The notes under the pieces: generated by a model
What the model was told of the DNA's origin: nothing
What the model saw: the letters and a program-made list of their open reading frames with translations, nothing else
The model's database searches: none
Position numbers and translations under genes: made by a program
In this document: positions 2,740-33,500 of the stretch, one piece after another
Position numbering within the stretch: position 1 is the stretch's first letter
Layout: each line of letters starts with the position of its first letter
Assembly: GCF_032854445.1 (NCBI RefSeq)
Contig: NC_088303.1
Coordinates: forward strand, 11,787,501-11,851,500
From: Liolophura sinensis
Lineage: Eukaryota; Mollusca; Polyplacophora; Chitonida; Chitonidae
Direction of reading: 5' to 3'
DNA: 64,000 bases

Positions 2740-5000
2740 CCGTCACATCCCTACCCCTCCAGAGATCTAAAGACTGAAATCCTCGGAAGAAGTGAAGTGT
2801 CCACTGGTAACAGGGGTTCTCTACCATAGAGTAAATAAAAAGGCCTTTCCTGAATGCTCTCTTGCATGCTTGTTCTGTATGCAAACAGTGCGAATGGTAT
2901 AATACGATCCCAGTCACAGTGATGGTTACTAACATACATGGTCAGCATTGTTGCCAACGTAAGATTAAACCCTCCACGAGCACATGGATCTGCGGATGAT
3001 AGACAGTATTATCTACTTTGGTAGTGTTCATGATTTCGCAAACAACTTTAACAACTTGAACAAGAAGCTCTTTTCTCTGTCTAACAGGAGGATTATGACT
3101 TCAATGACGAGCAACTATTTCTTGAACAAATAGGTTGGCGCATGTACGTGCATCTTGGGACTTTATTGCCAACCCCTTTGGCACTTTTTGTCAAGTAGTC
3201 GCTGAACACAACAACATACCGATAACCTTTATCCGTGTGCTGGATAGGAGCTAACAACTCTACGATCAAATTGTCCTTCCACCGGAAATGGTAAAAGAGG
3301 CGGTGGTGTCCGGTGGTGGAGTTTACTTTTTAAAACAGGAGATACAGGACTTCACTTCATTGAACAGTTGCATAAACAATCGTTTGCTCTTCTTCATCAT
3401 CGAGCTGAGCCAATACAACACCTAGTCCGTGGTTACTGGCGTCTATGTAGGGCACACATGCTAGAGAGAAATATTGTAAAATAGATGTAAAGCAAGCAGC
3501 ATCTCTCAGTCGGTTGAATGCGTTTTCGAAGTCTTGACACCATGAGAATTTTACATCTTTCTTCAAGAGATTATGTAAAGAGAATGCTATGGACGTAAAG
3601 TTACGTATATACTTCCGACAATACGACACAACGTCCAGGAAGCTGCAGAGTTCAGTCACATTGGATGGGTAGGGGAACTTCTTAATGGCACTTACTTTCT
3701 CAGGCTTGCTTCACGGATACGCTGAAGCACTTTACGGAGTTCAGAAATATGATCTTCAAGGTGGCTGAAAAAATGATTATGTCGTCAATGTAGACTAGAC
3801 AGGTTTTCCAATTCAAACCAACCAAGAGTAAGTCCATTCGACGTCGGAAGGTGCTCGGTGCATTTACCAATTCAAAGGCCATAACATTAAACTCAGAATG
3901 ACCACAAAAAGTTGAGAAATCTCCTTGTCCTTTTCGGCTACATCCACCTTCTAGTATCCCGAGAGTAAGTCAAGGGTGGTGAAGTACTTAGCACCTTCAA
4001 AAGCATGGACCATGTCGTCCACTAACGGTATTGGGTACATTAACTTCTTAGTAACTGAGTTTAAGGATCGACAGTCGACACAAACACGACAGGATTTATC
4101 TGGCTTTTGAACCAACACAACAGGAGATGACCAGGGACTATTTGATGGGCGATATAACGCCCTTATCCAGCCTCTTATCTACTTCCCTTTCAGCCATGTC
4201 TCGCTGGCTTGCTGGTGCGCAGTATGGTCGAAGCTTTATTGGATCGTGTCCTTGGGTATTTTACTTCATGTTATATCAAATTGGTTCTACCTAGATCTGC
4301 ATTTTTATCAACTAGAATGTCACTGCATTCATTTAACTTATTTTCCAACACAGTTTTCTCTTCTAACTCCAACTTAGACCCAGTGAGATCGATCTGATCA
4401 ACAAATGGCAACTTTTCTCCAGAAGGTTGGAGGTTAGCTATTACTATAGGCCAATCACATGGACTATGTACCTGTAATACACCCACTCTGATAGATATTC
4501 TCACTTGCACAGGTTTAGAGGATGTTCGAATTGGAACAAACAATTGTTCACTGGTGGCCACCACATGGGCGGGGTAAAGGCTGAACTGTGATACAAGTTC
4601 TTCACAGGGTTTACAACACCAACCAGTCCATCTGGTAACTTATCAATATTTTCCCGCAGTGTGACTCCTGATCGGCCTAGGAGTTGTACTGAATCTAACG
4701 GACAAACAGGCCAGCTGGTTCCTGTAAGATTATCTACATGTAACATAGGTGCAGTGAAATTTAACCAAGTAACAGTGCATTTGTGGAAGTCTATTTTGCA
4801 TTCTATCTGATTCCAGTGAGACAGTCCTAGGGCAATTTTTGAGCCACACAAAACATGACAGACATGACCTTGTCACCAATTGTGAAATTCCCATTCATTT
4901 TCCCTACAAGTTTTATTGATTCCCCAGTAGCTGACACAACAGTTTTATTGTCACTGGGAAGCAAACAGCATGGCTGAAGGCACAAAGGTATTGTTTACTT
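2740..5000 (-). mobile_element. decayed Ty3/gypsy-type LTR retrotransposon, pol region
   Basis: Reading the minus strand from high to low coordinates, the order is: a region upstream of RT with a protease-like stretch (about 5,000-4,270, including CKIDFHKCTVT); reverse transcriptase (about 4,170-3,700, with SPVVLVQKPDKS and the catalytic YIDD box near 3,790); the RT-connection/RNase H start (about 3,660-3,360, with DASNHGLGVVLAQ); and an integrase core and C-terminal part (about 3,290-2,750, with TDKGYRYVVVFSDY and FALFAYRTS). This is the usual protease-RT-RNaseH-integrase order of the Ty3/gypsy class. Frameshifts and stops separate the blocks, so it is dead. I see no gag and no LTR pair. Confidence 0.85.
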
Positions 5001-8251: not shown

Positions 8252-11200
8252 ATGGAGATGTCTGCTGATAAGAATTTTGAGACTCGCCAGAGGTTGGTGG
8301 AGGCCAGACTTCAGGCCGACTCTTCCGATGAGGAAAGACAGTTTCTCGAAGCCGCAGAACTAGGGGATATAGACAAGTTAAAAGAAATTCTAGAATCCGG
8401 GGCTGTCGCTGTTGAAATCGTGAACCTATCAGGGCGCACGGCGTTAGAGCTGGCCGTCGATGCCAATAATGTGGACATCGTGGAATATCTCTTGCCCAAA
8501 TGTTCCAAAGAAACCGTCCACAGGGCTTTACTGTGTGCCGTGCAAGAAGATAGAAACTTTATCTTTGAGCTGATAATTCAGCACCCCCAGTACTCGGAAA
8601 CAGCCGTCCCCTCAGTGACAAGGGATGCGGATGGCGAAAATGAACAACCCTACCAGAATGGCAAAGACACAGGTAGCGTTCCAGAAGCCAAAGGCGATAT
8701 CAATCCCGAAGCAGCAGCACTCCTCAGAGAAGCTCTTGTTTTGGCTGCCATGGAGTGTAACTTCGCAATTGTTCGAACACTTGTCTTGAAAAAGGCCTTC
8801 ATCGAGCCTCCGCACGATTACTTCTGCATGTGTGCGCCGTGCGAGGCACAGAAATCAGAGGATATGATGCAGTACACAAAACAACGACTGAGTACATTCA
8901 AAGCCCTAGCTAGTCCGGCTCACATATGTGTCACGGAAAAAGATCCAGTTATAGCGGCCTTCCTGCTCAGCCATAAGTTCAAGAAGCTCAGCGAGATTGA
9001 AATCGAATACAAGGTACGTTCCACGTCTGCTATCGGGACAAAATCCCATGTTGACTGGGCAAAATTCCATGTTTGATATTCGAACAAAATCCCATGTCTG
9101 ATATCAGGACAAAACCCCGTGTCTGGTATCCGGAAAAAAATCCCATGTTTTGGTATCCGGACAAAATCCCATGTTGACTGGACAAAATCCTATATCTGAT
9201 ATCCAGTCAAAATCCTATATCTGATATCCAGTCCAAATCCCATGGATGTTACCAGGACAAATCCCATGTCTGATAACCGCACAAAATCCTATATCTTATA
9301 TCTGGACAAATTCCATGTCTGATATCCGGACAAAGTCCCAGGTCTGATATCCGAACAAAGTCCCATGACGACTGGATATGGGTACATTACTCTTCAGGGG
9401 AACGTGTAACTTTCTGCTGATCGCTATTTTATGTGTGTGAAATACTCTCAGATTCTGTAGTCACACATGTTTACCACATACACATCTCCGGAAACAAAAG
9501 TACAATATTAATATATTTATGTACGCATTTAGTAAAGTTGACACTTTTCTTGCAGCAAACGTACCTCGACCTGGACCAGCAATGCCAGCAGTTCGCCATC
9601 GACCTGATTGCGGAGTGTAGAAGTTCTGTAGAGGTGTCCACAGTGCTGAGTGGAAGGACGATGGATTTGGACGGGGATTTGGACGAGGCCACGGATGAGG
9701 AGGACGACATACTGCCTCTGCTAAAGGTCGCTATGAGTCTCAATCAGAAGAAGGTAAGGTTCCATCATTACACTATGGACAAATATGAACGAATATATCC
9801 CGTATTCTGAACATTGCTGAGAAAAGTACAACCACACTTCTAAAGATGCCGAGAAGCTGCCTATGATAACGATTCCTTACAATCCACTTTTATCCCTCAA
9901 ATTTCTGTAAACGATTCTTAAATGGAATTCTAAATAATTACCCAAATGATAAAGACTTAACTAATCAGTGTCAAGGTTCTCAAGAATTTTCTCATTAATT
10001 AAATGCATAAAAACGGTATTTAAGGAAAATGTCAAGTAAATACGGATCACGTCCCCTCTCACAACTTGCCTACATCAGTATTACGTTCTTCTAAAGGGTT
10101 CTTCTCGCCTCAGCTGATCGGAGCCTAACCAGTGAGGTCGCAGGTTCGGATCCAGCTCTCGCTGATTCGATTGTGGGTTTACATCAAGAGTATTGTCAAG
10201 TATCTGCCGAAGGATGGCGATTTTCTCTCGGCACTGGTTTCCTGCAATCATATCTACACATTCATAAACGAAAACGTCTCCAGCGTTACACACCAATAAA
10301 AAATAGATAAATACAGAAAGTCTTATTTGAAATGGGGGTTAGAATTAATTGAATCTCCAATATTTCATTTTGTTTTACACTTTATATTGTCTAGCGTTTC
10401 TTATGGTAAGTATTCTTAGAATTTTTTATGAATACTGACAGGAAATTCAGCTTTAAATCTTCAATAGGTGTCGCCACGATATGGCTGAAATATTGCCGAT
10501 GTGGCGTTAAACCATAATCATTCATTCATTCAATATGTGTATTTCGGTGGATTTTTTAAATATTTTATATTTTCATTTTAACAAAAGAAAGTAGTGAACC
10601 GTCATAATAAACTATAGCTAATAAACTATAACTAAAGGTATTATATAAATCCTGCCTTGTCTATCACACCAAACTTCCCCGGTTATTCTACATTATTTTG
10701 ATGTAATACTAATGTCGCTCACCTCAGGGGAGGTTTGGGTGACGATGCGTTGCTCTGCTCAGTTCTATGACGTCGATTTCAGTTTGTCGCTCATCCCAGT
10801 TGTCAGGCACAGGTAGCTCAACTGTGTTTCAGTGGCGTCCCTGTTCTCCACTAGCTGATCAGATTGTTTTGTAGCTCAGCTGTGGTTCTGTGGCGTCCCC
10901 TGTTCTCCGCTACCTGATCAGATTCTCTTACCTGAGAGGAGATTTGGGTTGTGGCACTGCTCAAGTGTATAACGTCTCTTGGTTTCGGTTTTAGTTTGTC
11001 GCTCACCCTAGTTGTTTTGTAGCTCAGCTGTGGTTCTGTGGCGTCCCTGTTCTCCGCTACCTGATCAGATTCTCTTACCTGAGAAGAGGTTTGAGCTGTG
11101 GCACAGCTCAAGTGTATAACGTCTCTTCGTTTCGGTTTCAGTTTGTCGCTCACCCTAGTTGTTTTGTAGCTCAGCTGTGGTTCTGTGGCGTCCCTGTTCT

Positions 11201-14200
11201 CCGCTACCTGATCAGATTCTCTTACCTGAGAGGAGGTTTAGGTTGTGGCGCTGCTCAAGTGTATAACGTCTCTTGATTTCGGTTTCAGTTTGTCGCTCAC
11301 CCCAGCTGTCAGGCACAGGTAGCTCAGCTATGGTTTAGTGGCGTCCCAGTTCTCCGCTACTTGAACAGATTCGGTTACCTGATGGCCGCCATACCAGCCG
11401 GCATTTTCCTCGTTCCGCTGCTCTCTATTGTCTACTTGGTAGCCCCCTGGAGTAAGGTAACCCTAGTAACCTATTATACCAAATGTAATGCATAATTTAT
11501 GCTTCATGAAACAATTAGCAAAATATGCTTTGACCACTTTGTGACCCATCGTCACCTTTCTGTCCACTCAGAATAAAACTCTGCTTGAACTAAAAGCTGT
11601 CAGTACTTTGTCATTTACATGTAACCATGCAAATACTCCAGTACCATACTTTTATTCTTCTTAACATTACGTGCTGTGTCCTTTTTTAAATGTATTTATA
11701 CCTCCTCATCCCCTTTATACCGTCAACAGGTGGCAACGATATTGAACACACCAATCATGCGCTTTGTCAGTTTCACGTGCTCATACCTGACCTTCCTCAT
11801 CTTAGTGATGATAGCAAAGCTCAATCTGGGAATGAGCATGGACGGGATTGGCTGTGACAACATGAGCTCCACACAGCAGTTCACCTTCCTCTTCCTTATG
11901 TTCTGGGTATTAGGTGAGTACTGAATCTAGAAAACAACATGAGCTCCGCACAGCCAGTTCGCCTTCCTCTTGCTCATGTTCTGGGTCTTAGGTGAGTACT
12001 GAATCTAGAAAACAACATGAGCTCCGCACAGCAGTTTACCTTTCTCCTGCTCATATTCTGGGTCTTAGGTGAGTACTGAATCTAGAAGACAACATGAGCT
12101 CCTTACAGCAGTTCGCCTTCCTCTTGCTCATGTTCTGGGCTTTAGGTGAGTACTGAATCTAGAAGACAACATGAGCTCCTTACAGCAGTTCACCTTTCTC
12201 CTGCTCATGTTCTGGGTCTTAGGTGAGTACTGAATCTGGTAGATAACATGCTCTCCTTACAGGAGTTCGCCTTTCTCCTGCTCATGTTCTGGGTCTTAGG
12301 TGAGTTCTGGATCTGGTAGATAACATGATCTCCACACAGCAGTTCGCCTTTCTCCTGCTCATGTTCTGGGTCTTAGGTGAGTACTGAATCTGGTAGATAA
12401 CATGATCTCCTCACAGCAGTTTACCTTCCTCCTGCTCATGTTCTGGGTCTTAGGTGAGTACTGAATCTGGTAGATAACATGATCTCCTCACAGCAGTTCG
12501 CCTTTCTCCTGCTCATGTTCTGGGTCTTAGGTGAGTTCTGGATCTGGTAGATAACATGATCTCCACACAGCAGTTCCCCTTCCTCCTGCTCATGTTCTGG
12601 GTCTTAGGTGAGTACTGAACCTGGTAGAAAACATGATCTCCACACAGCAGTTCGCCTTTCTCCTGCTCATGTTCTGGATCTAAGGTGAGTACAGAATCTG
12701 GTAGAAAACATGATCTCCACACAGCAGTTCCCCTTCCTCCTGCTCATGTTCTGGGTCTTAAGTGAGTACTAATCCTGGTAGATAACATGATCTCCTCACA
12801 GCAGTTTACCTTCCTCCTGCTCATGTTCTGGGTCTTAGGTGAGTACTGAATCTGGTAGATAACATGATCTCCACACAGCAGTTTACCTTTCTCCTGTTCA
12901 TGTTCTGGGTCTTAGGTGAGCACTGAACCTGGTAGATAACATGATCTCCACACAGCAGTTCGCCTTTCTCCTGTTCATGTTCTGGGTCTTAGGTGAGTAC
13001 TGAACCTGGTAGAAAACATGATCTCCTCACAGCAGTTCGCCTTTCTTCTGCTCATGTTCTGGGTCTTAAGTGAGTACTGAACCTGGTAGATAACATGATC
13101 TCCACACAGCAGTTTGCCTTTCTCCTGCTCATGTTCTGGGTCTTAGGTGAGTACTGAATCTGGTAGATAACATGATCTCCTTACAGCAGTTTCCCTTCCT
13201 CCTGCTCATGTTCTGGGTCTTAGGTGAGTACTGAGTCTGGTAGATAACATGATCTCCACACAGCAGTTTCCCTTTCTCTTGCTCATGTTCTGGGTCTTAG
13301 GTGAGCACAGAACCTGGTAGATAACATGATCTCCTCACAGCAGTTCCCCTTACTCCTGCTCATGTTCTGGGTCTTAGGTGAGCACTGAACCTGGTAGATA
13401 ATATGATCTCCTCACAGCAGTTCGCCTTTCTCCTGTTCATGTCCTGGGTCTTAGGTGAGTACTGAATCTGGTAGATAACATGATCTCCACACAGCAGTTT
13501 CCCTTCCTCCTGCTCATGTTCTGGGTCTTATATGAGTACTAAACCTGGTAGATAACATGATCTCCACACAGCAGTTTGCCTTTCTCCTGCTCATGTTCTG
13601 GGTCTTAGGTGAGTACTGAATCTGGTAGATAACATGATCTCCTCACAGCAGTTTCCCTTCCTCCTGCTCATGTTCTGGGTCTTATATGAGTACTAAACCT
13701 GGTAGATAACATGATCTCCTCACAACAGTTTGCCTTTCTCCTGCTCATGTTCTGGGTCTTAGGTGAGTACTGAATCTGGTAGATAACATGATCTCCTCAC
13801 AGCAGTTTCCCTTCCTCCTGCTCATGTCCTGGGTCTTAGGTGAGTACTGAATCTGGTAGATAACATGATCTCCTCACAGCAGTTTCCCTTTCTCTTGCTC
13901 ATGTTCTGGGTCTTAGGTGAGCACAGAACGTGGTAGATAACATGATCTCCTCACAGCAGTTTACCTTCCTCCTGCTCATGTTCTGGGTCTTAGGTGAGCA
14001 CTGAACCTGGTAGATAATATGATCTCCTCACAGCAGTTCGCCTTTCTCCTGTTCATGTTCTGGGTCTTAAGTGAGTACTGAATCTGGTAGATAACATGAT
14101 CTCCACACAGCAGTTTGCCTTTCTCCTGCTCATGTTCTGGGTCTTAGGTGAGTACTGAATCTGGTAGATAACATGATCTCCTCACAGCAGTTTACCTTCC

Positions 14201-17200
14201 TCCTGCTCATGTTCTGGGCCTTATATGAGTACTAAACCTGGTAGATAACATGATCTCCACACAGCAGTTCACCTTTCTCCTGTTCATGTTCTGGGTCAGG
14301 TGAGCACTGAACCTGGTAGATAACATGATCTCCTCACAGCAGTTTACCTTCCTCCTGCTCATGTTCTGGGTCTTAGGTGAGCACTGAACCTGGTAGATAA
14401 CATGATCTCCTCACAGCACTTTACCTTCCTCCTGCTCATGTTCTGGGTCTTAGGTGAGTACAGAATCTGGTAGATAACATGATCTCCTCACAGAAGTTTC
14501 CCTTCCTCCTGCTCATGTTCTGGGTCTTAGGTGAGTACTGAATCTGGTAGATAACATGATCTCCACACAGCAGTTTACCTTCCTCCTGCTCATGTTCTGG
14601 GTCTTAGGTGAGTACTGAATCTGGTAGATAACATGATCTCCTCACAGCAGTTTACCTTCCTCCTGCTCATGTTCTGGGTCTTAGGTGAGCACTGAACCTG
14701 GTAGATAACATCATCTCCACACAGCAGTTTGCCTTTCTCCTGTTCATGTTCTGGGTCTTAGGTGAGTACTGAACATGGTAGAAAACATGATCTCCTCACA
14801 GCAGTTCGCCTTTCTCCTGTTCATGTTCTGGGTCTTAGGTGAGTACTGAACCTGGTAGATAACATGATCTCCACACAGCAGTTTGCCTTTCTCCTGCTCA
14901 TGTTCTGGGTCTTAAGTGAGTTCTGGATCTGGTAGATAACATGATCTCCACACAGCAGTTCACCTTCCTCCTGCTCATGTTCTGGGTCTTAGGTGAGCAC
15001 TGAATCTGGTAGATAACATGATCTCCACACAGCAGTTCGCCTTTCTCCTGCTCATGTTCTGGCTCTTAGGTGAGTACTGGATCTGGTAGATAACATGATC
15101 TCCAAACAGCAGTTCGCCTTTCTCCTGCTCATGTTCTGGGTCTTAGGTGAGCACTGAACCTGGTAGATAACATGATCTCCACACAGCAGTTTGCCTTTCT
15201 CCTGTTCATGTTCTGGGTCTTAGGTGAGTACTGAATCTGGTAGATAACATGATCTCCACACAGCAGTTTACCTTCCTCCTGCTCATGTTCTGGGTCTTAG
15301 GTGAGTACTGAATCTGGTAGATAACATGATCTCCACACAGCAGTTTACCTTCCTCCTGCTCATGTTCTGGGTCTTAGGTGAGTACTGAATCTGGCAGATA
15401 ACATGATCTCCACACAGCAGTTTACCTTCCTCCTGCTCATGTTCTGGGCCTTATATGAGTACTAAACCTGGTAGATAACATGATCTCCACACAGCAGTTT
15501 ACCTTCCTCCTGCTCATGTTCTGGGTCTAAGGTGAGTACTGAATCTGGTAGATAACATGATCTCCACACAGCAGTTTACCTTCCTCCTGTTCATGTTCTG
15601 GGTCTTAGGTGAGTACTGAATCTGGTAGATAACATGATCTCCACACAGCAGTTTACCTTCCTCCTGTTCATGTTCTGGGTCTTAGGTGAGTACTGAATCT
15701 GGTAGATAACATGATTTCCACACAGCAATTCGCCTGCCTCCTGCTTAGGTGTATGTTCTGGATCTTAGATTACCTTTTCCCTCTGTACGTCTTCACATTT
15801 ATTTGCTTATTTGATTGGTGTTTTACGCTGTTCACAAGAATATTTTACATGTATGACGGTGGTCAGCAAACCGGACAGTGCCCAGGGAAACCCATGTCCT
15901 TCCGTAGGTTGCTGGCAGACTTTTCTAAATACGGCCGGAGGAAGCCAGCTTCAGCTGAACTCAAAAGGAAAGAATTGGTGGGAAACTTCTGGGTCATTGC
16001 GCGTACATCTTTATATGATGCGGATATGTACCACGCAAAACTGTCGAGAATGGGCGCTATAACAACGACTAAATAAATAAGTTACACTATCTGTTAATAT
16101 GTTCAAGCACAATTCGAAACACCTATCTATTGAGTACAGCGTAAAACACCAATCAAATAAATAAACAAATAAACAAATAAATAAATAAATAAATAAATAC
16201 ATAAATAAATACATAAATAAATAAATAAATAAATACCTATCAGATAAATTACTAAATGTCCATGATGCCCTTTACAGTTGAATAACAATGGCTTGTATTA
16301 GTTTCTAAAATTTTCTGTGATCCTCTATGTTAAAAAAACGATAGGTCTGATGTGGGAGGAAAGCAAACAGATCTACGACGAAGGAGGCAAGGATTATTTT
16401 TCTTCCTTCTGGAACGTCATGGACACTATAATGTTAGCACTGTTTATGTGTACGTTCTCGCTGGAGGTTGTGGCGCCCAGGGCGCTCAGGAAACTGTACG
16501 ATACGGAGTACCGCCAATCCGGGGAGCCAGGCTACTGCGATCAGCTCAGAGAAGAGTACGCCATATGTGATAGCCCAGTCAAGCTGAAACAACCCACCCG
16601 TGAGTGACACGCTTTACCCGTCACAGTATTATAGTTAATATCAGAAGAAAAGAATTTTGACAAAGGAGCTATTCTGAACACTGTAACGTTCAGTTACAAT
16701 TTACTTGTGTCAGTGTTCACTTTTTGAAATTCTCCGCTCTAAACAAATTGTTTACAAAGACGTCTACCTTGGCGCATGTACAGCAAATATAGCATTAACT
16801 TGAGTTTCAGGATAATTTACATAATCCATGGTAAGTTATTGTTTACATTTTTATTTGCCGCTGTCGATTTATGCTTCTACTTGCCAAGGGAGATTACTCT
16901 AGCTGCAATCAGTTTGGTGTCCAACTGAACACGCCCGTCTACCTTTTCTTTAAAAAAAAAGAAAGAAACTAGAAATTTCACACAGAACATCGGCCAGTTT
17001 TTGACGTTGAAAGGAAAGGAATTTAAGGGTATACTTCAGTATAGTTCTTAAGTAGTTTTATCTGTTTTGGGCATTTGAAATTCCAGAAAGTCATGAGCTT
17101 CTCGTTCAGGGGCCTTTGATCTTACATAGTTTGATAAGCGGAAGGAGCATACCTACCCCACGTGTGTTTACAATTAAATGTCGATACCACTGCAGGATCC

Positions 17201-20200
17201 CAACGCCTCAGATAACGAAGCCTTATACGAATCATAAATATATACATATCCATATTACATCAAAGCGATTGTCTCCATTCTGTCCACTTGCTAAAATAAC
17301 CATGTGTATCAACTTCTTCGTGAAGAGTTGAAATCATTCAACTTTTCCCTACCTGGGAGACATGTTTTAGAGTGTGTACCGTACAACACCTGTATATTTA
17401 AAAAGCAGATTAAATCATAATAAAATAGAAAATGTAACCGCCATATACGAAGAACTATTCCTGAAAGACTAGTTTTGATGTATCTGTCTATGTTGCAGTT
17501 GTGTGGGAACCCACCTGGGTGCCGGACCCATCCCTCCTCTCTGACATCACATTTTCCATCGCCGTCCTCATGAGCATCGGGCGCATCTCCTTCATCATGC
17601 CCTCTAATGAACAGTTTGGGACAATGCTCGTGTCTTTCCGTAGAACCAGTGGAGACATTGTCAAGTTGTGTTCCATGTTCATTCTGATCTTACTGGCGTT
17701 TGCTTGCGGAATGGCCGTGCTTTACGGCGGAGAGTCCTGCCACAACGAACATTTTACCAGGTATACAAGTGTAAATACACCTCGCTTTATACAAACCATC
17801 ACTTAAACACGTGTGATGATTGCAATCACCCCATCGAATATACACGTGCAATGAGTTACTAAATACACATAAACAATCATGTGTAGGTGTGGTGTAAACA
17901 TGTGACAATAAATATCGGTTTGACAAGATAAGACGCACACATATGAAGTTTTAACATGTTTGATCATCTTTGATATTCACAGTTAACAACGGCTTTTTAA
18001 TCTTATCTGGTATACGTTCGTAACAGCAGCCTTTATTTTAAGAGGTTTGATGTACGTAAGGTGCAACCATCGTTCAATAGATATAATATGTAACGACATG
18101 GCTACAGCCAATGTGCTTACACCTGATGTTAGAGCTTAAGTACAACTCTCATTATAACGGGTACCGTTACAGTTATAATCATTCCACCAGATTCATTATG
18201 AGGTCAATCATGATAGCCTACGCCCAGCATCAGGGATCAGTTAAATACTACTAAGCGGTAAACCAGTCATCGTATAAGGTTGATGATACGATACCACAGT
18301 ATTATCTAACCAAACTTTTCGACTATTGTATAATTTTTTATCAGGCCTATTTTTGACCCAAAAATAATGTTACGATGGATTTGATTCAGCTTGGAGCTCT
18401 TTCTAAGCCATCCTGTATCGTTTAGAATCGTGCTTGTGCCCGGTGATTAAATACCACGTGCTTGTGTACTAAAATGTGGTGCATTCCTCTTTCAGCTTGA
18501 CCACAACCAGTAAGACATTAATCTGGGCCATGTTTGGTATGGGGGACAGTGAATACACGAACGTTGAGCATGAAGACGAAAGCGACGCTTACATCTTACG
18601 TTCCGTCATCACAGCTAACATCGGCTCAGTCCTCTTTGGCGTCTTCGTCTTCTCCACTGCAGTGGTTCTTATGAATCTTCTCATCGCCATGATGGCTAAC
18701 ACCTTCCAGGAAATTCAGGTAATAATTCCTTTCTCATTCACCTTTGCAAAGCGATCTTTTCTTTCTTTATTCAAAATGTCAAATATACTATGTAATCTTA
18801 TTTATTATTTGTATTTTGACAATATCATGATTTTCTTTATTTGAATAAGTTTAAGCAATGTTTTTAGCTATAGGCCTTCACAGACCTGTGCATATAACGT
18901 GACGTCGCTCATATAGTCTTATATGACGTCGTGTCTTGTTGCATGACGTAGGAATGTTAAAGCTGACTGAACTTGTATTATGACGTCATTCCGCTATGTT
19001 CGGATTGGAACGTCATAAAATAAAATGTTTTATTTTTTACGTGATGGCGGTGTGTAATAACAACAGTGATATCTAACTAAGCCATTGACATGTCACTTTT
19101 ATCAGTGAAGGAAATCCTGACATTTCACCTTTATATAAATAATAAACTGATAATATTGCATAGTGAGGGTTAAATGTCATAAATATTTTTCGAGTGAGTT
19201 GTGAAAATGACAGTCCAGGATATCCGAACCTTTTTGAGGCTTCACGCTGTGCTCAAGAATATTTCACTTATACAACGGCGGTGGCCATTCCAGAGGAAGC
19301 CAGCATGAGCATTTGTGAATACTTCTGGTATAGTGCTGCGCTAGAAGGCTAACCACTCAGCCACAAAGCCCCTCTACTATGTAATTATGCGTGTCGTGAA
19401 TGAATATTTTCTCTAATCAAACTTGGATGTTTCCATGTTCTAAGATTTCTCTAACGGCGTATATATTGGGCTGGCGGGTGTCATGTAAGATGACTTGATT
19501 CAGTGAGGCAACACTTTGACCCGGTTACTTCATGTTGTGTGTATGTCGTACACAGGATGACCGAGACGTGGAGTGGAAGTTTGGTAGAACAGAATTGTGG
19601 CTGAACTTTATAGATCCCGGCAGCGCAGTGCCGCCACCTTTTAACTTGATCCCCAGCACGAAAAGCGTCATGATGACTTGTGTATGGATGCACGAAAAGT
19701 GTTGCTCAAAAGCTGTGAAAATTGAAGCAAAACGACTGGAAAGGTTTGTCAGAGTAAGTATAAGCTCTGTGTTAAAAAAAAACGGACAAAACCCACGTGA
19801 AATAAATTAAAAATCTTAAGGGATTATAACTTAGTACAATCTACCAATTTCAATCTGGAAATCTAACTTTTTCGCCCAAAGAGCTAACTTTCTAGTCATT
19901 CAACTATCTCGAAACTGAAATCGCTTAGTTTTTGTATCACCGGTATTCTCTATATGGTGGAAAAGGGAGCTTGCATGTTACATGTATGTACGTTTGCATA
20001 ATCATGCCTTATGCAGTGTATAACATTTGTTGACTGATAACATTGTTTAATTTGATTTTCCTGAAATAGCCAGCTGAGTACGAGGGGTTTAATGAAGAAG
20101 ATGACCGACATTCCAGAGTGGTAAGTGCATTTAGTACGAAGACATAGCTTTGTAGCCATCTAACGGTGCAAATACACTTATCTTTTATAACTGGTTTAAC

Positions 20201-21855
20201 GTTGGTTTGGACAAATGAACGAAATGCATCTTCAAATGACCAAAATGATAGGGACGGGCGTGATGGTGTGACAACTGTGACATGGTTTTTCTTTTCTGTC
20301 TTTATGATATCCAGGACGTTTTAACTACCCTAGTGAAGAGATATGTGAGGAAGGTGGAACGAGAGAGAATGGAGCAGGATGAAGGTCAGTACAGAATCTG
20401 TAGAGGCAATGAAAGCAATGAAGCAATCCATGAAAATCAATAGATCGATTAGTCATCTATTCATCTCAATCATCATTAAGCTTTATCGATTATTTCTGGA
20501 AGCATCTGCCATTGTAAAAAATGTAGACGAGCAAATCCATGATAGGCATTTAGAGATTGAGAGACAACCTTCGGAGTTCTTAGCGAGCTTGTGGAGGGCG
20601 GTTGTGAGATAACCATCGGAGTTCTTAGCGAGCTTGTGGAGGGTGGTAGTGAGATAGCCATCGGAGTTCTTAGCGAACTTGTGGAGGGTGGTAGTGAGAT
20701 AGCCATCGGAGTTCTTAGCGAGCTTGTGGAGGGTGGTAGTAAGATAGCCATCGGAGTTCTTAGCGAGCTTTTGGAGGGTGGTAGTGAGATAGCCATCGGA
20801 GTTCTTAGCGAGCTTGTGGAGGGTGGTAGTGAGATAGCCATCGGAGTTCTTAGCGAGCTTGTGGAGGGTGGTAGTGAGATAGCCATCGGAGTTCTTAGCG
20901 AGCTTTTGGAGGGCGGTAGTGAGATAGCAATTGGAGTATTTAGCCAGCCTGTGGCTGCAAATTATGTTCGACAATTTGCCTGTGATGCGCGCAAGTTTGT
21001 TTCAGTGAATCTTCACTTCGCTATCCCAGTCATCCTGAAGTGGTACTGTGTCTTTATGGGGAAATCAGTCGTTTTCATAATGATAACAACCTGCCAATGC
21101 CGGTGGAGTAAGAACAATTATGGGACGTACATGTACATTATTTATGGTAACAATATTGTTACTTTAAGAAAATGAGCTTGCTGAATTTTATTTAGAGATA
21201 ATGTTTAATTGGAGCTTTATTCTGTTAGGCATGTAGGAGCACGGATTTCTTGATATCTGTATTCAGTTTGCTGCACACACCGTACATTTCAAGATTAAAA
21301 CCTTCCAGCATGTGAAACTGCAGACAAAATTAATATCAGACTTGACAATCTCGGTGATCCCATGCCTTATCTTCTCGAAATAAAATAAGCCAAGCATATG
21401 ATTACTCCGGCATTCATTTCCAGGTATTCTCAAGTTACAGCCATTTGTTATTTATTTATTTATTTGACTGGTGCTTTACGCCGTGCTCAAGAATATTAGA
21501 TAGAATCCTCTAGCGCTAGTACGCTAACCAACTGAGCCACAGGAACGCATACAGCAATTCGAGTGGCTCATCTCACTGACTAGTCCCCTCAACTCACCAC
21601 TCAATCATTCATTTTAACACCGTAAACACCTGTGGTATATTCTCTGCCCATCCAGATTCCACAAAGGACGAAATGCTAAGGCGAGCTCTGGACCGGGTGA
21701 CGTCTAAGCTGGAGAAGAGGCTCGACTACCTGGATGACGAGATGTCGGCGGTGATCAAAGGTCTGTCCGGTGTGCAAGGCCTTCAAGGGACACTGCGGGA
21801 GGATTTCCAGAGGTTAAGCGCAGAGAAGGAGGCAGGGCAGTCAGCACCACCTTAG
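8252..21855 (+). CDS. TRPC-type cation channel, 11 coding exons
   Basis: Short transient receptor potential (TRPC) channel, a plasma-membrane tetrameric Ca2+-permeable cation channel usually gated downstream of phospholipase C. Coding exons: 8252-9013, 9556-9753, 11289-11456, 11730-11913, 16345-16599, 17499-17760, 18496-18718, 19556-19753, 20070-20120, 20315-20384, 21656-21855. All have GT-AG borders, all phases join, and they give 856 residues, normal for the family. Residues about 25-110 are ankyrin-like. HDYFCMCAPC (188-197) has the His/Cys spacing of the TRPC zinc site. FVAHPSC opens exon 3, followed by a hydrophobic pre-S1 helix; S1-S2 lie in exon 4, S3 in exon 5, S4-S5 in exon 6, and the pore and S6 (NLLIAMMANTFQEIQ) in exon 7. 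EWKFGR in exon 8 is the TRP box; RYVRK in exon 10 fits the calmodulin/IP3-receptor binding region; a coiled coil ends the protein. An in-frame stop at 8,210 and a fair Kozak context support ATG 8252. Confidence 0.93.
9021..9378. repeat. about 25-bp minisatellite in TRPC intron 1
   Basis: Roughly 13 imperfect copies of a unit around 'atatccggacaaaatcccat', starting within about 10 bp of the exon 1 donor (GTACGT at 9,014). Open frames through it are an effect of repetition, so I end exon 1 at 9,013. Confidence 0.85.
10085..10315 (+). mobile_element. second SINE-like family in TRPC intron 2
   Basis: A B-box-like 'aggttcggatcc' lies at about 10,141, after a tRNA-like head ('gcctaaccagtgaggtcg'). 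A body ends in 'gcgttacacaccaataaa' and an A/T-rich tail. The body differs from the main SINE family of this window. Confidence 0.6.
10465..10545 (+). mobile_element. SINE tail fragment (ATTC-repeat tail)
   Basis: The phrase 'atatggctgaaatattgccg' followed by 'atgtggcgttaaaccataa' and a (TCAT)n-like tail is the 3' end of a SINE type that I recognise from molluscs. The 5' part is missing. Confidence 0.6.
10700..11288 (+). repeat. 147-bp array copying the 3' end of intron 2 and start of TRPC exon 3
   Basis: Acceptor-like 'tttcag|TTTGTCGCTCA' junctions occur at 10,783, 10,995 (as ttttag), 11,142 and at the true exon 3 start, 11,289. The last three are spaced exactly 147 bp apart, and an extra partial copy lies near 10,866. 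Each copy carries about 90 bp homologous to exon 3, translating to FVAHPSC..AQLW..GVPVLRYL. The copies diverge before the hydrophobic helix and lack a donor. The later copies lack about 10 bp present in the true exon. These are exon-edge duplicates, not extra coding exons, since only 11,289 continues into the pre-S1 helix and a donor. Confidence 0.85.
11859..15770 (+). repeat. 77-bp array, about 50 copies of the TRPC exon 4 / intron 4 donor junction
   Basis: The unit is the last 53 nt or so of exon 4 plus the first 24 nt of intron 4. Each copy contains an acceptor-like 'ctccacacag' or 'ctcctcacag', a pyrimidine-rich stretch still translating to about QFTFLLLMFWVLG, and 'cttag|GTGAGTACTG'. The first donor is at 11,914 and the last good one at 15,686: 3,772 bp, or 49 periods of 77. 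Most copies keep GTGAGT or GTGAGC; a minority read TATGAGT or AAGTGAG. Reading on from exon 4 into the array meets a TGA almost at once, so 11,913 is the functional exon end. Confidence 0.92.
15795..16005 (-). mobile_element. SINE, minus orientation
   Basis: Same family as 1,512-1,777 in reverse: 'tttatttgcttatttgattg', 'gtgttttacgctgttcacaa', then 'gacagtgcccagggaaaccc', 'ggttgctggcagac' and 'ggaggaagccagc', ending in tRNA-like 'ctgggtcattgcgc'. It lies directly downstream of the 77-bp array. Confidence 0.85.
16130..16236 (+). mobile_element. SINE 3' tail with long (AAAT)n
   Basis: 'gagtacagcgtaaaacacca' followed by about 85 bp of AAATAAATAAAC-type repeat. A 5'-truncated SINE copy in opposite orientation to its neighbour. 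Confidence 0.8.
19225..19375 (-). mobile_element. SINE, internally deleted, minus orientation
   Basis: 'gtgctcaagaatatttcact', 'tatacaacggcggtggccat', 'gaggaagccagcatgagc' and the tRNA-like end 'ggctaaccactcagccacaa' identify a reversed SINE with an internal deletion, in TRPC intron 7. Confidence 0.8.
20575..20945. repeat. 45-bp minisatellite in TRPC intron 10, about 8 copies
   Basis: The unit starts 'gttcttagcgagcttgtgga'. With a 45-bp period, one plus-strand and two minus-strand frames stay open and translate to 15-residue repeats (for example GVLSELVEGGSEIAI). The array lies wholly inside intron 10 (20,385-21,655), which is fixed by matching exon phases on each side. Confidence 0.9.
21452..21547 (-). 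mobile_element. short SINE, internally deleted, minus orientation
   Basis: A (TTTA)n head, 'tgactggtgctttacgccgt', 'gctcaagaatatta', then directly the tRNA-like end 'cgctaaccaactgagccac'. It lies in TRPC intron 10, about 110 bp before exon 11. Confidence 0.85.
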
Positions 21856-27520: not shown

Positions 27521-30500
27521 ATGAGGTAAGTGATCATTTTGGGTCAACTCGACATAAATCTTTGCTAAGTTAATAAGTCAAACCATATAAAAAGTGTGCT
27601 TACGTTTTGGCACATTTTTAAGGCTTTCTAAAGCAGCATTTCATTGTACATATGTTTGTTTCATTGTACATATGTTAAGATTATATACATGAACCGCATT
27701 CCTGTGTTAAATGCCGATCCACCGGAAGCCAAAGGGTTTTCCATCTGGTTACGCAAGGTTGATTACCCTGCTCAACATGGTAGGGGTCAGTTAAAAGGGA
27801 TAGAATATAAATTGACCTGTTTCTTACTTCACGTGTACCATATCTTGTTTTGTTCCAGGTTCCCAGCTGTGTGTCTGATCAGTGTCGTTTGCGGATTGCT
27901 TACGGTAAGATTTAATGTCTACATCTGAATCTGTAACAAATTATACCAGAAAGAACTGCCCCTATTTATGAAATGCCATCGACTCGGGGTCACAATAATA
28001 GAAGGGCTCTAGGGAAAGCACTGATATTAGAGACGAGGCTCTAATATCAGTTAGAGCCGAGAATTTGTTAATACCGCAACGGTTTTCGAACCAGCGACCT
28101 ATTTATTCGTCATAGGAATTGCACAACAGTAATAGTGTTGTCCTGATTTAGGATTGTAATAACTGGGAATAGCTCATGTCCAAGTGCTCAGAATTAAGCA
28201 GGACCACTCCTGGGCCCAGTTTCACAAAGCGTACGACATTTTTTTTAATCGTATATTTGTCGTACGATATTTTGTACGTTACAATTACTGTACCATCTTT
28301 GTAAAACTGGGCACTGGTTCCGAACCTGAACACAGGTCATTTCTGTCTGAGGCACTAGATGATACAGTATTATTCGATGTCGTAAGGGAACTGCATTATG
28401 CAATGGCACTTACAATAGTTTAACACATTTTGGAGAGTTACTTATCCTCTCCAGGCAACGTCTTGTACTTTTACTCAACCACGCTATCCCGTCCCTAACG
28501 GGAATGAAACGACCTTAGGTGAGATTGGGTGCGTACACAGCGAGTGTGATTACGCGACTTAGTCTTTTTCAACAGAATATTGTTTATAGTTTCGAAGCCG
28601 TAAACAAAAACACTTATTGCAGAGATGCCAGGCTGTGAACTTCGGGACGACCAAGAGGCTTATCGACATTGCCAGAAGAACGTCTGCCAAAGAAGACGCT
28701 TTATACCAGCTCAGATTCCAAAACGGTATGTGACCTTGGCAGATGATGTCACTGATTTGTCGTCCATGTGAGGTTTATTTACAACCAGGGAATGAAACTG
28801 TTTTTCTCATCAGAGATACTTCATTTATATTGAATAATGCCTTTGTCTTTCTTCTCTTCTATGACGTGTTTTCTCCTAAAATTTTATTCATGAAACCAAA
28901 ACGTCTATCTGAGTAGAGATTGAACACAGGCACTGTGTTAAACTGTATTCAGTGGCTCGTTTCCAATTTCTCTTCCAGTTTTTTCGACTACAGTTATAAT
29001 TAATAATAATTGGCAGAGGATTTTAGAAACATTTGTGAGACGTATGGTGTCTCAGATCTTTCTGCCAATTATATTTATCTTGGCTGATTTTCGCTGAGCG
29101 CTAGGATTTGAAAAACCCGCCTTAGCGCAAAATGCAGATTGTATTACTAAGTTGGATATTTCATTGGCAGGAGTTGATAAGAGGACTGAGGATTTCAAAA
29201 CCATAGAAGCAGCAATGTTTGAAGAGACACCGGAACATGCTTTGGAGATCAACAGACAGAGTAGACTGGTTAACTGGATATCTTTTCTAATCAGGTACTC
29301 AAGGTGATCAGGTCGTTAAGGTCTTGATATGCATCCAGAAATGTGAGGAATAAAAATCAGCTCGCATTTTTCAAGATGCAAAAATATTTTTTTTGAAATC
29401 TAAGGTTTATGCTGTATCTTCACACTTGGTATGGTTGGGGCAATAACACAATAACATAAATGTGTGCACAACCAGTGTCAAGACTGACAGCTATGCTTGG
29501 TTTCACTTTTCTTTTGCGTATAAATGTAAGTTCTGAAAAGGTATTGTAATGTTACATAACACTTCATCATCAACCACACGCTCTGGATTTCTACATGCAA
29601 ATAACTATCGACATAATAATTAGAAGTTACAAATACAATTTTGCAGGAGGGAGAAAGTCAATGCCACGGTGAGAGAGATCATTGACTTTGCCAAACTTCC
29701 CAAACACTTGGACACTGTTTACTGCCCATATGAGTTTTCCGAGAAATGTACGAGATCCAAATACCGGTCTGTGGACGGAAGCTGCAACAATCTGCAGCAG
29801 CCGCTGCGAGGAGCAAGCTTTACTCCATTCGCCAGAGAGATGCTTGCCGAATACGAAACAAGTAAGCATATGTATTTCACGGGCAGCAGTATGAGCCAGG
29901 AGCGCTGTAGTTCCAATCAAATAATTGTGTTGTTTTCTTTGGCCCCACAACAAGTGTATATTATTTGACTGGTTTACGCTGTATTCAAAATTTTTCAATT
30001 ATACATCGCCGGCTCAGATTATGGTGGGAGAAAGATACACCCACAAAGTTAGTTACGTTCTCGCCTAAGGCGAAACCATCGACTTTATCTGGTTCTGTCT
30101 CGTCAAATAGTTCGTGTCGCCAATAGATTACAGAAGTATGCCATTGTTGTAAGACACTGTGCAATTCGACTTCGAAAATAGAGAGGTATGGCAGAGACTT
30201 CCATTTGCATTAGAACTTTACCGTGAACTTTTCTCTTGTTTCATGCCAGCTGTCGCTCAAATTTCTGTTCAGATTTAACTGACAGAAACTTTGTCATACT
30301 CTCTGTCTGTGGTTTATTAACGTTTCCGGCCTACATTTGTCAGGTGTTGACGGCATGGACGACCAGCCCCGTCAGCATGGTAAGACCGGGAGGTTACCCA
30401 GCGCTAGGGCTGTCAGCCGGGCAGTCCATCAAGGGAACTTTGCGGAGAAGACGGACCGGGATATCAGCTCCATCTTCACATTCTGGGGCCAGTTCATGGC

Positions 30501-33500
30501 ACACATGATTTCTGACAGAGCCGTCGCTACAGGTAACTCGCCGTTGACGCTTGAAAACCGTTCCACAAGAGCATTCCATATTCTGTAGAACAATAATGTT
30601 ATCCTTTTAGATAACTTTGACGTGTTTTATGTGAATACGTGAAATAAAAAGAAGTGAACGCATGTGTTATCATTTATGAGGGTGGCTCCAATTCGCTGTC
30701 TGTATGATGTCAAGTAACTTGTAACACGAATTGTAAGTGAGTGAGTGAGTGAGTACTCAGGGTTTAACGTCGTTTGACAAATTGTAAAGATTATAGACCT
30801 TTAATTTAGAAGTTACCAGCTAAAGGTGTGTGATGTAGCTATGTGCACCTGGATGCCCATGGAGGGACAGACAGTTAGGAAAACATGAAAACACTTACAC
30901 GGTGTAACGCAAATACGCACCGTACATCCATACTAAGCCACTGCTCATTATTATAGTCAGCCCATGTAACCATCCATTATTGAACTTATTTGGTTTACTG
31001 TGAAAGTAGGAGTTCATTTATAGTTTCTGAGAAAGATGTTTAATGTCACATTTCCATCTGATAGGATACAACAGCACCAGGGTGGACTGCTGCTCGCAAG
31101 ATGTCCCCACGTAAGTGTCATTGCTGTTTCTCTGAGGATTTCTACACTTACATCCATTTGCCTTTTCTGTGTAAGGAACTCATGTCGTGTACAGAAACTC
31201 GATTGCTTCAGACGTGTACTCAAATTAGTTTAATATTTCCACTTGGCTCCCCAAAATCGTTAGAGGGCGACATGATAGAAGGAGAGAATGCATCTCAGCT
31301 TGTCGTTAGAGAATTTCTATGTATGGTTGCACGTTGTATGCCAAGAATTTGTTCATTTTTATCTGTATTTTTGCAGACCTCGTTCTGAATGTTTCAACAT
31401 CGACATTCCGGAAGGGGACCCGTTCAGAAAGGATGGGCGGACCTGTTTGGGATTTTTGAGGTCTATGGAAACAACGACTATGGGATGTGTGACCGGTACA
31501 AACTTTTGACTTTCTCCTTTACATGTAAAACACTAGTTCATTTTACTCTTGTGGAAGATGCACTTTCGACATGGGTACGGCATTCTTCTTTTTCCACCAA
31601 CTACTAATTACACAGATAATTTATGTGACGCTACGGCCGAAAATATTGTTCACTGATAACTGTAACTTTGGCCTACATCTAATTTTCAATGGACCAATTG
31701 AAACATTGTCGGTGGCTGAGTGATACTTTAAACAAACCAAACCCAGGCTAATCGACAAACTAATGTGTTTAGAATGAATCATTACCAGCACTTAAATATA
31801 TTTAGCAGTACATAACTGATTGTATGATGCACAGGTAAAAGAGAGCAGCTGAATCTCGCATCTTCCTACATTGACGGTAGCGCGGTGTACGGGTCACACA
31901 ACGAAAAGGTGGAATATCTGAGAAGGCATCACGGTGGTAAGCTGTTTTATCAAACCACAGTTAAAAAGCCACATATATGATATAAATATATATGAATATC
32001 CATTGATACTTACGTCAAAATGAATACGACAAAATATTCGCCAAGTTTAATAATAACAGCATTCAGCTTTCCAGAGAAATAATCAGAAATGCACCTCGCT
32101 TGAAGAACCTGGCTTTAAGACACACCATGTATACGGTTTTTGATCAATGGTTTAAACGTACTTTGAGCACCTCCTCTACCCAGCGTTGTGTTATTACATA
32201 ATATGCAGGCGAGCTGTGGACGTCTGAACCGAATGAGCTTCCACATAAGTCCCATCCCAATGCGATCGCCGAAAAGATGGGATTGGCCTTTGCACGAGCA
32301 GGTAAGTCAACAAAACTCTTTTACTTCAGAGGAAATAGTGTTTAATTGTTTTCCAGCACCCTTAAAAATTCGTTGGATAAAAATTCGTCTGCGTATAATA
32401 CTGGATATCGTTTTATCCCAATGTTACGTTTTACAAGTGGGCACTTAATCAGTTAGGGCCATCTAACTACTAATTTACGAAAATGGCAACTCATTAAACA
32501 GTCTAAAGAGACGCTTGAGAGTACTTTATTGTACTTTTCTACAAACAGGTGATCCTAGAGCACCGGAAGTAGCCATGCTGACAGGAATCCACACGATATG
32601 GCTGAGAGAACACAACCGTATTGCTCGTGAGCTGGCCGTTATCAACCGGTTTTGGGATGACGAAAAGCTGTACCAGGAGGCGAGGAGAATCGTCGTGGCT
32701 TTAATCCAGCACATCACCTACAGCGAGTGGTTGCCAGTTCTGCTAGGCCCAGCCATAGTTAAGGACTACGATCTTCTCCCACGGGTCTCTGGATTCTACA
32801 CAGAGTATGATCCCGCAGTGGACGCCTCCACCACTAACGTCGTATCCACTGCAGCGTTCCGCTTCGGTCATTCACTGGTCACCTCCACCTTTCCTTTATG
32901 TAAAAAAGACTTCACACAAGGTAGCTCTCCTGCCTTGAAGCTAGGAGATATATTCTTCCAGTCTAACCAATACCTGCTGCATGAACAGGGCCTAATGAGA
33001 GGGCTGTTGACAAAGCCCGCGGCTTCCATGGATGCCATCGTCACCAACGATCTAACCAACAAACTGTTCAAAACTCATCAGGGAAACGGTGGTGATCTGG
33101 TAGCGTTCAATATCCAGAGAGGCAGAGATCACGGACTTCCCTCGTACAACTCTTGGAGGACTTTCACTGGTCTGCCCTCGGCGTCTTCCTTTACAGGGGC
33201 GGGCGGATTTGTGGACATCCCCGAAGACACCGTCCAGGCTCTGGCCAGTGTTTATAGGTGAGTCTCCAGGGTGGAATGTTAAAATGGTTTGTGGTAACGC
33301 TGGAAGCTTTTAAATCAATCATTCATGTTCCGTTGGAAAGTAAATCAGAATAACACGAATGGGGCTTAGAACAGTATTTTAGTAACTCATTACTAATAAG
33401 TTACTAAAAGACCGGGCCTAAAAATTACTAATGAGCTACTTAAAGTTTGCTACTGTCGTTCTATCCTTTTTACTTCAAGAACTAAATTCGAAAAGATTCG

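What the first reader, a model, noticed from the sequence alone, without database searches (positions are those of the whole stretch)
11859..15770. About 50 tandem splice-donor sites inside one TRPC intron, each also shaped like a ratchet (recursive) splice point
The exon 4 / intron 4 junction of the TRPC gene has been amplified about 50-fold in 77-bp steps. In each unit a pyrimidine-rich stretch ends in AG directly followed by GTGAGT ('tgggtcttag|gtgagt'). This is the layout of a zero-length recursive splice site, where an acceptor regenerates a donor. The pyrimidine tract exists because the copied codons (F, L, M) encode a hydrophobic transmembrane helix (S2). Stepwise removal would leave the mRNA unchanged, while use of a downstream donor with its mini-exon (37 nt from 'cacacag|CAG' to 'TTAG') would shift the frame. 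An intron with dozens of competing donors could tune channel output by splicing fidelity. The array is directly seen; the splicing role is inference.
Basis: partly seen in the sequence, partly recalled or inferred. Interest (0 to 1): 0.82.

Follow-up and report, generated by a model that had tools for sequence, protein, structure and literature searches.

The report
Splice-donor minisatellite in chiton TRPC gene
In a chiton's ion-channel gene, the point where one coding block ends has been copied about 50 times into the following intron; many other genes of this animal carry the same kind of array, so it looks like repeat growth that splicing ignores rather than a built splicing ratchet, and it offers a natural test of how cells choose among identical splice sites.

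Summary
The array is real. Window 11,859-15,768 holds 50 full and one broken 77-bp unit, each copying the last 55 nt of TRPC exon 4 and the first 22 nt of intron 4. GT survives in 46 of 50 units, AG|GT in 42. The gene is intact (11 exons, 856 codons). The assembly matches the published Liolophura sinensis genome.

The ratchet reading is not supported. AG|GT columns are no more conserved than the rest of the unit. A TRPC paralogue shares the intron position without an array. The intron is 4.4 kb, far shorter than those where recursive splicing is known.

Nor is the array unique. Of 31 donor-bearing arrays read on chromosome 1, ten begin at homology-confirmed exon ends (SUFU, raptor, LST8, BTAF1 twice, prominin, fucosidase, KATNIP, antistasin, ankyrin). 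LST8 and KATNIP exons do not end in AG, so the AG|GT layout is not required. Across 13 such arrays GT is neither preserved nor purged, and reading past the first donor always meets a stop before the array ends.

Best reading: neutral minisatellites founded on exon-intron junctions, with the first donor presumably used. No RNA was available; donor choice is inferred.

The parts
8252..21855 (+). TRPC channel gene, coding span, 11 exons: 8252-9013, 9556-9753, 11289-11456, 11730-11913, 16345-16599, 17499-17760, 18496-18718, 19556-19753, 20070-20120, 20315-20384, 21656-21855; 856 codons, no internal stop
   Evidence: joined translation; 430-aa core matches TRPC6/TRPC3 structures, E about 1e-59
11730..11913 (+). 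exon 4 (S1 and start of S2); ends phase 1 in TTAG, true donor 11913|11914
11859..15768 (+). 77-bp array: 50 full units and a broken 51st; first unit is the exon 4 end (55 exonic nt) plus 22 intronic nt
11914..16344 (+). intron 4, 4431 bp, most of it the array
11914..11923 (+). start of intron 4; reading on from the first donor gives G-E-Y-stop (TGA 8 nt on), so use of any later donor truncates the protein
16345..16599 (+). exon 5; its own acceptor is pyrimidine-poor (0.35)
10783..11382 (+). second boundary array of the same gene: 147-bp period, four copies of the intron 2/exon 3 acceptor (first exon bases 10783, 10995, 11142 and the true 11289)

Best explanation
The array is a minisatellite founded by tandem duplication of a 77-bp stretch that happened to straddle the exon 4/intron 4 junction of a chiton TRPC gene. 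It then grew inside the intron to 51 copies by slippage or unequal exchange. It is one of a genome-wide class in this species: minisatellites founded on exon ends, each carrying a string of donor copies into the intron. Normal mRNA is most likely made by joining the first, exon-proximal donor (11913|11914) to 16344|16345; the later copies are decoys that drift neutrally. The AG before GT and the pyrimidines before it come from the S2 codons and are incidental. Shown: the array, its founder junction, the intact gene, the other exon-end arrays, the lack of site-specific conservation. Inferred: which donor is used, and the duplication mechanism.
For: Array and founder unit; intact TRPC gene; paralogue with the same intron position and phase, a 1.3-kb intron and no array. 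AGGTGAGT three times at 60-90 bp spacing: 2004 hits against 655 for the dinucleotide-matched AGTGAGGT and 541 for the reversed motif, while single AGGTGAGT is only 1.30 times the reversed motif. AGGTAAGT 1091 against 481; arrays on C1 23 against 11, and 14 against 3 in C1:0-6.95 Mb (my count from the lists). Of 31 donor-bearing arrays read on C1, 10 start at exon ends confirmed by homology. In 13 exon-end arrays GT columns have mid-rank 0.53 of the unit, Wilcoxon p=0.59, and every read-through meets an in-frame stop before the array ends. The exonic share of the unit is compatible with random founder placement (KS p=0.30).
Against: No RNA data, so use of the first donor is not shown. Reports on pairs of competing donors show that regulators such as SRSF1 can favour the intron-proximal one (PMC5585400), which would predict use of late copies. 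The conservation test has modest power, since units are related by recent duplication and the other arrays were picked for holding three intact motifs. The sampled arrays all come from the first 6 Mb of one chromosome.
Confidence: 0.76

Rival explanations
1. Recursive (ratchet) splicing: the intron is removed in 77-nt steps, each TTAG acting as acceptor and regenerating GTGAGT as donor, leaving the mRNA unchanged.
For: 42 of 50 units have AG|GT; pyrimidine content before the AG equals that of the gene's real acceptors and exceeds exon 5's own; 30 array donors pair with U1 as well as the true one (-10.1 kcal/mol). Any such step would be silent, so some use is possible.
Against: AG|GT not conserved within the array; intron far shorter than those of fly ratchet points; exon-end arrays exist at TTG|GT and GTG|GT exons, so the layout is not what lets arrays persist; equal donors 77 nt apart would often retain a 77-nt block, and unit 1's intronic part carries a stop.
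Confidence: 0.09
2. Poison-splicing regulator: use of later donors or of 37-nt mini-exons yields stops, and the copy number tunes TRPC mRNA through decay.
For: Extension of exon 4 ends in a stop after 8 nt; one mini-exon shifts the frame and two or three give stops; many strong decoy donors are present.
Against: No conservation of decoy sites; the same arrays occur at exons of unrelated housekeeping genes; no RNA evidence.
Confidence: 0.1
3. [quoted passage not shown]
For: AGGTRAGT arrays are more enriched over their reversed control (3260 against 1152) than TGGTRAGT arrays (2246 against 1834), though donors with AG are also commoner.
Against: Non-AG exon-end arrays are found at about the rate expected from donor composition: two homology-confirmed purely non-AG (LST8, KATNIP) plus antistasin, whose first junction is ATG|GT, in 6 Mb against seven AG ones in 5.3 Mb.
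Confidence: 0.05

Closest known systems
Minisatellites / VNTRs
   Same: Head-to-tail 77-bp units, 92% alike, diverged outer units and mixed inner ones, many other arrays in the same window
   Different: The founder unit straddles a coding exon's donor, so each copy carries a strong 5' splice site; the class recurs at many exon ends of this genome
Drosophila ratchet points / zero-length recursive splice sites (PMC6110457, PMC5126111)
   Same: Juxtaposed acceptor and donor around AG|GT, preceded by pyrimidines
   Different: 4.4-kb intron instead of very long introns; tens of sites at 77-nt spacing; no conservation signal; no splicing evidence
Vertebrate and fly recursive-splice exons (PMC8605326)
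   Same: Each AG|GT is followed 77 nt on by a competing donor
   Different: Competing donors are equally strong copies; no evidence of use
[quoted passage not shown] potato RdRp case PMC4974935, where the duplication crosses an intron-exon boundary)
   Same: Duplication across an exon-intron boundary copies splice signals
   Different: An old intron, shared with the paralogue, is enlarged; no new intron; about 50 copies instead of two

Membership tests
[quoted passage not shown]
   42 of 50 units AG|GT; pyrimidine fraction 0.65, U1 pairing -10.1 kcal/mol
Recursive (ratchet) splice sites | Lies in a very long intron (commonly over 40 kb in flies, PMC6110457) | tested here: not met
   intron 4 is 4431 bp
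Recursive (ratchet) splice sites | Site conserved above control AGGT motifs (PMC6110457) | tested here: not met
   tested within the array only: AGGTGAGT columns 0.096 diversity against 0.087 elsewhere; over 13 arrays GT mid-rank 0.53. No other chiton genome was at hand
Recursive (ratchet) splice sites | Ratchet junction reads, lariats or saw-tooth nascent coverage | not testable with these tools
   no RNA data at hand
Minisatellite / VNTR | Head-to-tail array of 10-100 bp units with high identity | tested here: met
   period 77, 50.5 copies, 92% matches
Minisatellite / VNTR | Copy number varies between individuals | not testable with these tools
   one assembly only
[quoted passage not shown]
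   the paralogue has the intron at the same position and phase
TRPC channel | Sequence match over the membrane core to TRPC proteins | tested here: met
   TRPC6 E=2.5e-59, TRPC3 3.2e-59

The most novel reading that the evidence does not exclude
In this chiton lineage many genes carry strings of 5 to 60 near-identical donor sites just inside the intron, and splicing still picks the exon-proximal first copy: a first-donor rule that overrides donor strength and number, so that exon-end minisatellites are neutral.
Probability: 0.35. Interest if true: 0.75.

Novelty: new variant of a known kind. Interest (0 to 1): 0.58.

Why it matters
How the spliceosome chooses among equal 5' splice sites has mostly been studied with two or three competing sites in constructs. 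Here are natural genes, including conserved ones such as raptor, LST8, SUFU and BTAF1, in which the true donor is followed by tens of equal copies at fixed spacing. Public RNA-seq of the same species can show which copy is used, at what error rate and at what cost in decay. It also shows that tandem repeats founded on exon ends can spread through a genome without visible purging of the decoy sites.

Tried and rejected
Assembly artefact: units differ from one another, the scaffold is chromosome-sized, and the published HiFi reads average 8.35 kb (PMC11068029), longer than the 3.9-kb array; reads themselves could not be checked. Dispersed element: the unit was found only here. Selection on splice sites: none seen. 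Higher-order repeat: only a weak dip at lag 23. Literature: searches for tandem or minisatellite donor arrays returned nothing matching. TGGATGAR as a control motif gave 2278 hits and its reverse 479: single 8-mer controls vary widely, so I lean on dinucleotide-matched motifs and homology-confirmed exon ends. A first assembly of the exons used a wrong exon 8 start (19555); corrected to 19556.

Full report
What the window is. The window is G000:C9:11787501-11851500 of an assembly of 609,464,459 bases in 632 contigs, with C9 37,343,639 bases long. These figures match the published chiton assembly GCA_032854445.1 (609.5 Mb, 632 scaffolds, N50 37.34 Mb), first named Liolophura japonica and corrected to L. 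sinensis (PMC11068029, PMC12441733). The identification rests on these numbers, not on a sequence comparison.

The gene. Eleven exons from 8252 to 21855 on the + strand join into an open frame of 856 codons, and the 430-aa core matches TRPC6 and TRPC3 over its full length (E about 1e-59). Intron 4 runs from 11914 to 16344, phase 1. A second TRPC gene on the same chromosome (C9:14.51 Mb, minus strand) has an intron at the same place and phase, about 1.3 kb long and without a long array. The intron is therefore older than the array, which grew in one of the two genes or was lost from the other.

The array. TRF gives 11859-15745, period 77, 50.5 copies; a broken last copy ends at a TTAG near 15768. 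The first unit is the coding end of exon 4 (55 nt) plus 22 nt of intron. GT survives in 46 of 50 full units, AG|GT in 42, and the CACAG acceptor-like site in 49. By U1 pairing, 30 copies equal the true donor (-10.1 kcal/mol), which is among the two strongest of the gene; pyrimidine content before TTAG is 0.65, like the gene's real acceptors and above exon 5's own 0.35.

Is it maintained? If the sites mattered one by one, their columns should vary less than the rest of the unit. They do not: 0.096 mean diversity for AGGTGAGT against 0.087 elsewhere, and sliding windows place it at the 62nd percentile. Four units have lost the AG and four both AG and GT. The test has limited power because units are related by recent duplication.

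Is it alone? No. A scan of the own genome for AGGTRAGT three times at 60-90 bp spacing gave 3260 hits, against 1152 for the reversed motif. Dinucleotide-matched controls agree: AGGTGAGT 2004 against AGTGAGGT 655; AGGTAAGT 1091 against AGTAAGGT 481. Single AGGTGAGT is only 1.30 times its reversed control (24,497 against 18,845). Hits are not arrays. Counting arrays from the printed lists gives 23 against 11 on chromosome 1 for the AAGT pair, and 14 against 3 in its first 6.95 Mb for the GAGT pair.

What are the others? I read 31 distinct donor-bearing arrays from the first 6 Mb of C1. Ten begin at the end of an exon confirmed by homology: SUFU, raptor, BTAF1/Mot1 at two exons, alpha-L-fucosidase, prominin, ankyrin, KATNIP (DUF4457) and antistasin, LST8. 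Three more (L044, L063, L064) sit behind open frames without a named match. So exon-end minisatellites are a class in this genome, and the TRPC array is one of its larger members.

Does the AG|GT layout matter? LST8 ends TTG|GT and KATNIP GTG|GT, and the first antistasin junction is ATG|GT. At such junctions no zero-length acceptor-donor site can form, yet the arrays exist. Pyrimidine content before the junction is also not special across the class (0.35-0.76). The ratchet-like look of the TRPC unit is best read as a by-product of its S2 codons.

What must splicing do? In 13 exon-end arrays (TRPC, the ten above, and the open-frame cases L044 and L063), reading on past the first donor meets an in-frame stop before the array ends, 5 to 734 nt on. 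Use of the last donor would thus never give the normal protein. Either the first donor is chosen, or later choices are repaired by further splicing or lost to decay. Across these arrays the GT is neither kept nor purged relative to the rest of the unit (mean mid-rank 0.53, Wilcoxon p=0.59). Neutral drift of decoys next to a reliably chosen first donor explains this most simply. The choice itself is inferred, since no RNA could be read here.

One point in favour of the ratchet idea remains: a unit ending in AG|GT can be spliced in any order without changing the mRNA, so occasional recursive steps would be invisible in mature RNA. I therefore leave it a probability of about 0.09 rather than nil.

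The same gene carries a second boundary array: a 147-bp repeat with four copies of the intron 2/exon 3 acceptor. Arrays thus arise on acceptor sides too, as expected if founder duplications fall at random. The exonic share of the unit in the 13 donor arrays is compatible with random placement (KS p=0.30).

Literature. Recursive sites in flies are reported as restricted to very long introns, commonly over 40 kb, and more conserved than control AGGT motifs (PMC6110457). Donor competition decides whether recursive exons are kept (PMC8605326). Intron gain by duplication of AGGT segments is established (PMC3443670), including a case crossing an intron-exon boundary (PMC4974935). I found no paper describing arrays of exon-end donors in molluscs or elsewhere; the library holds open-licence papers only.

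Noticed in passing
window 10783-11382: 147-bp array with four copies of the intron 2/exon 3 acceptor of the same TRPC gene, the acceptor-side counterpart of the donor array.
   Followed up: partly
L055 and L056 (C1:4189800-4201500, minus strand): Two different exons matching BTAF1/Mot1, about 8 kb apart on one strand and probably of one gene, each followed by its own donor array (33-bp and 66-bp units).
   Followed up: partly
C1:0-6 Mb of G000: Donor-bearing arrays cluster near the start of chromosome 1: 8 of the 23 AGGTAAGT arrays listed on C1 lie in the first 5.3 of 93 Mb.
   Followed up: no
window 9019-9367: 25-bp minisatellite starting 5 nt after the exon 1 donor of the TRPC gene; it does not include the donor.
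   Followed up: no
window 20571-20954: 45-bp array (8.5 copies) in the last intron of the TRPC gene, open in several frames.
   Followed up: no
window 15797-16235: Right after the array, copies of a short mollusc-type repeat (TTATTTGATTGGTGTTTTACGC) in both orientations with an AAAT run.
   Followed up: no
window about 26000-58000: Direct repeats at about 10.5-kb spacing (the same 20-bp repeat at 27639, 38216 and 48591), one copy holding what looks by eye like a haem-peroxidase-like open frame (32467-33261).
   Followed up: no
window 2751-4639 minus strand: Broken open frames that look, by eye, like parts of a retrotransposon polyprotein (reverse transcriptase and integrase).
   Followed up: no
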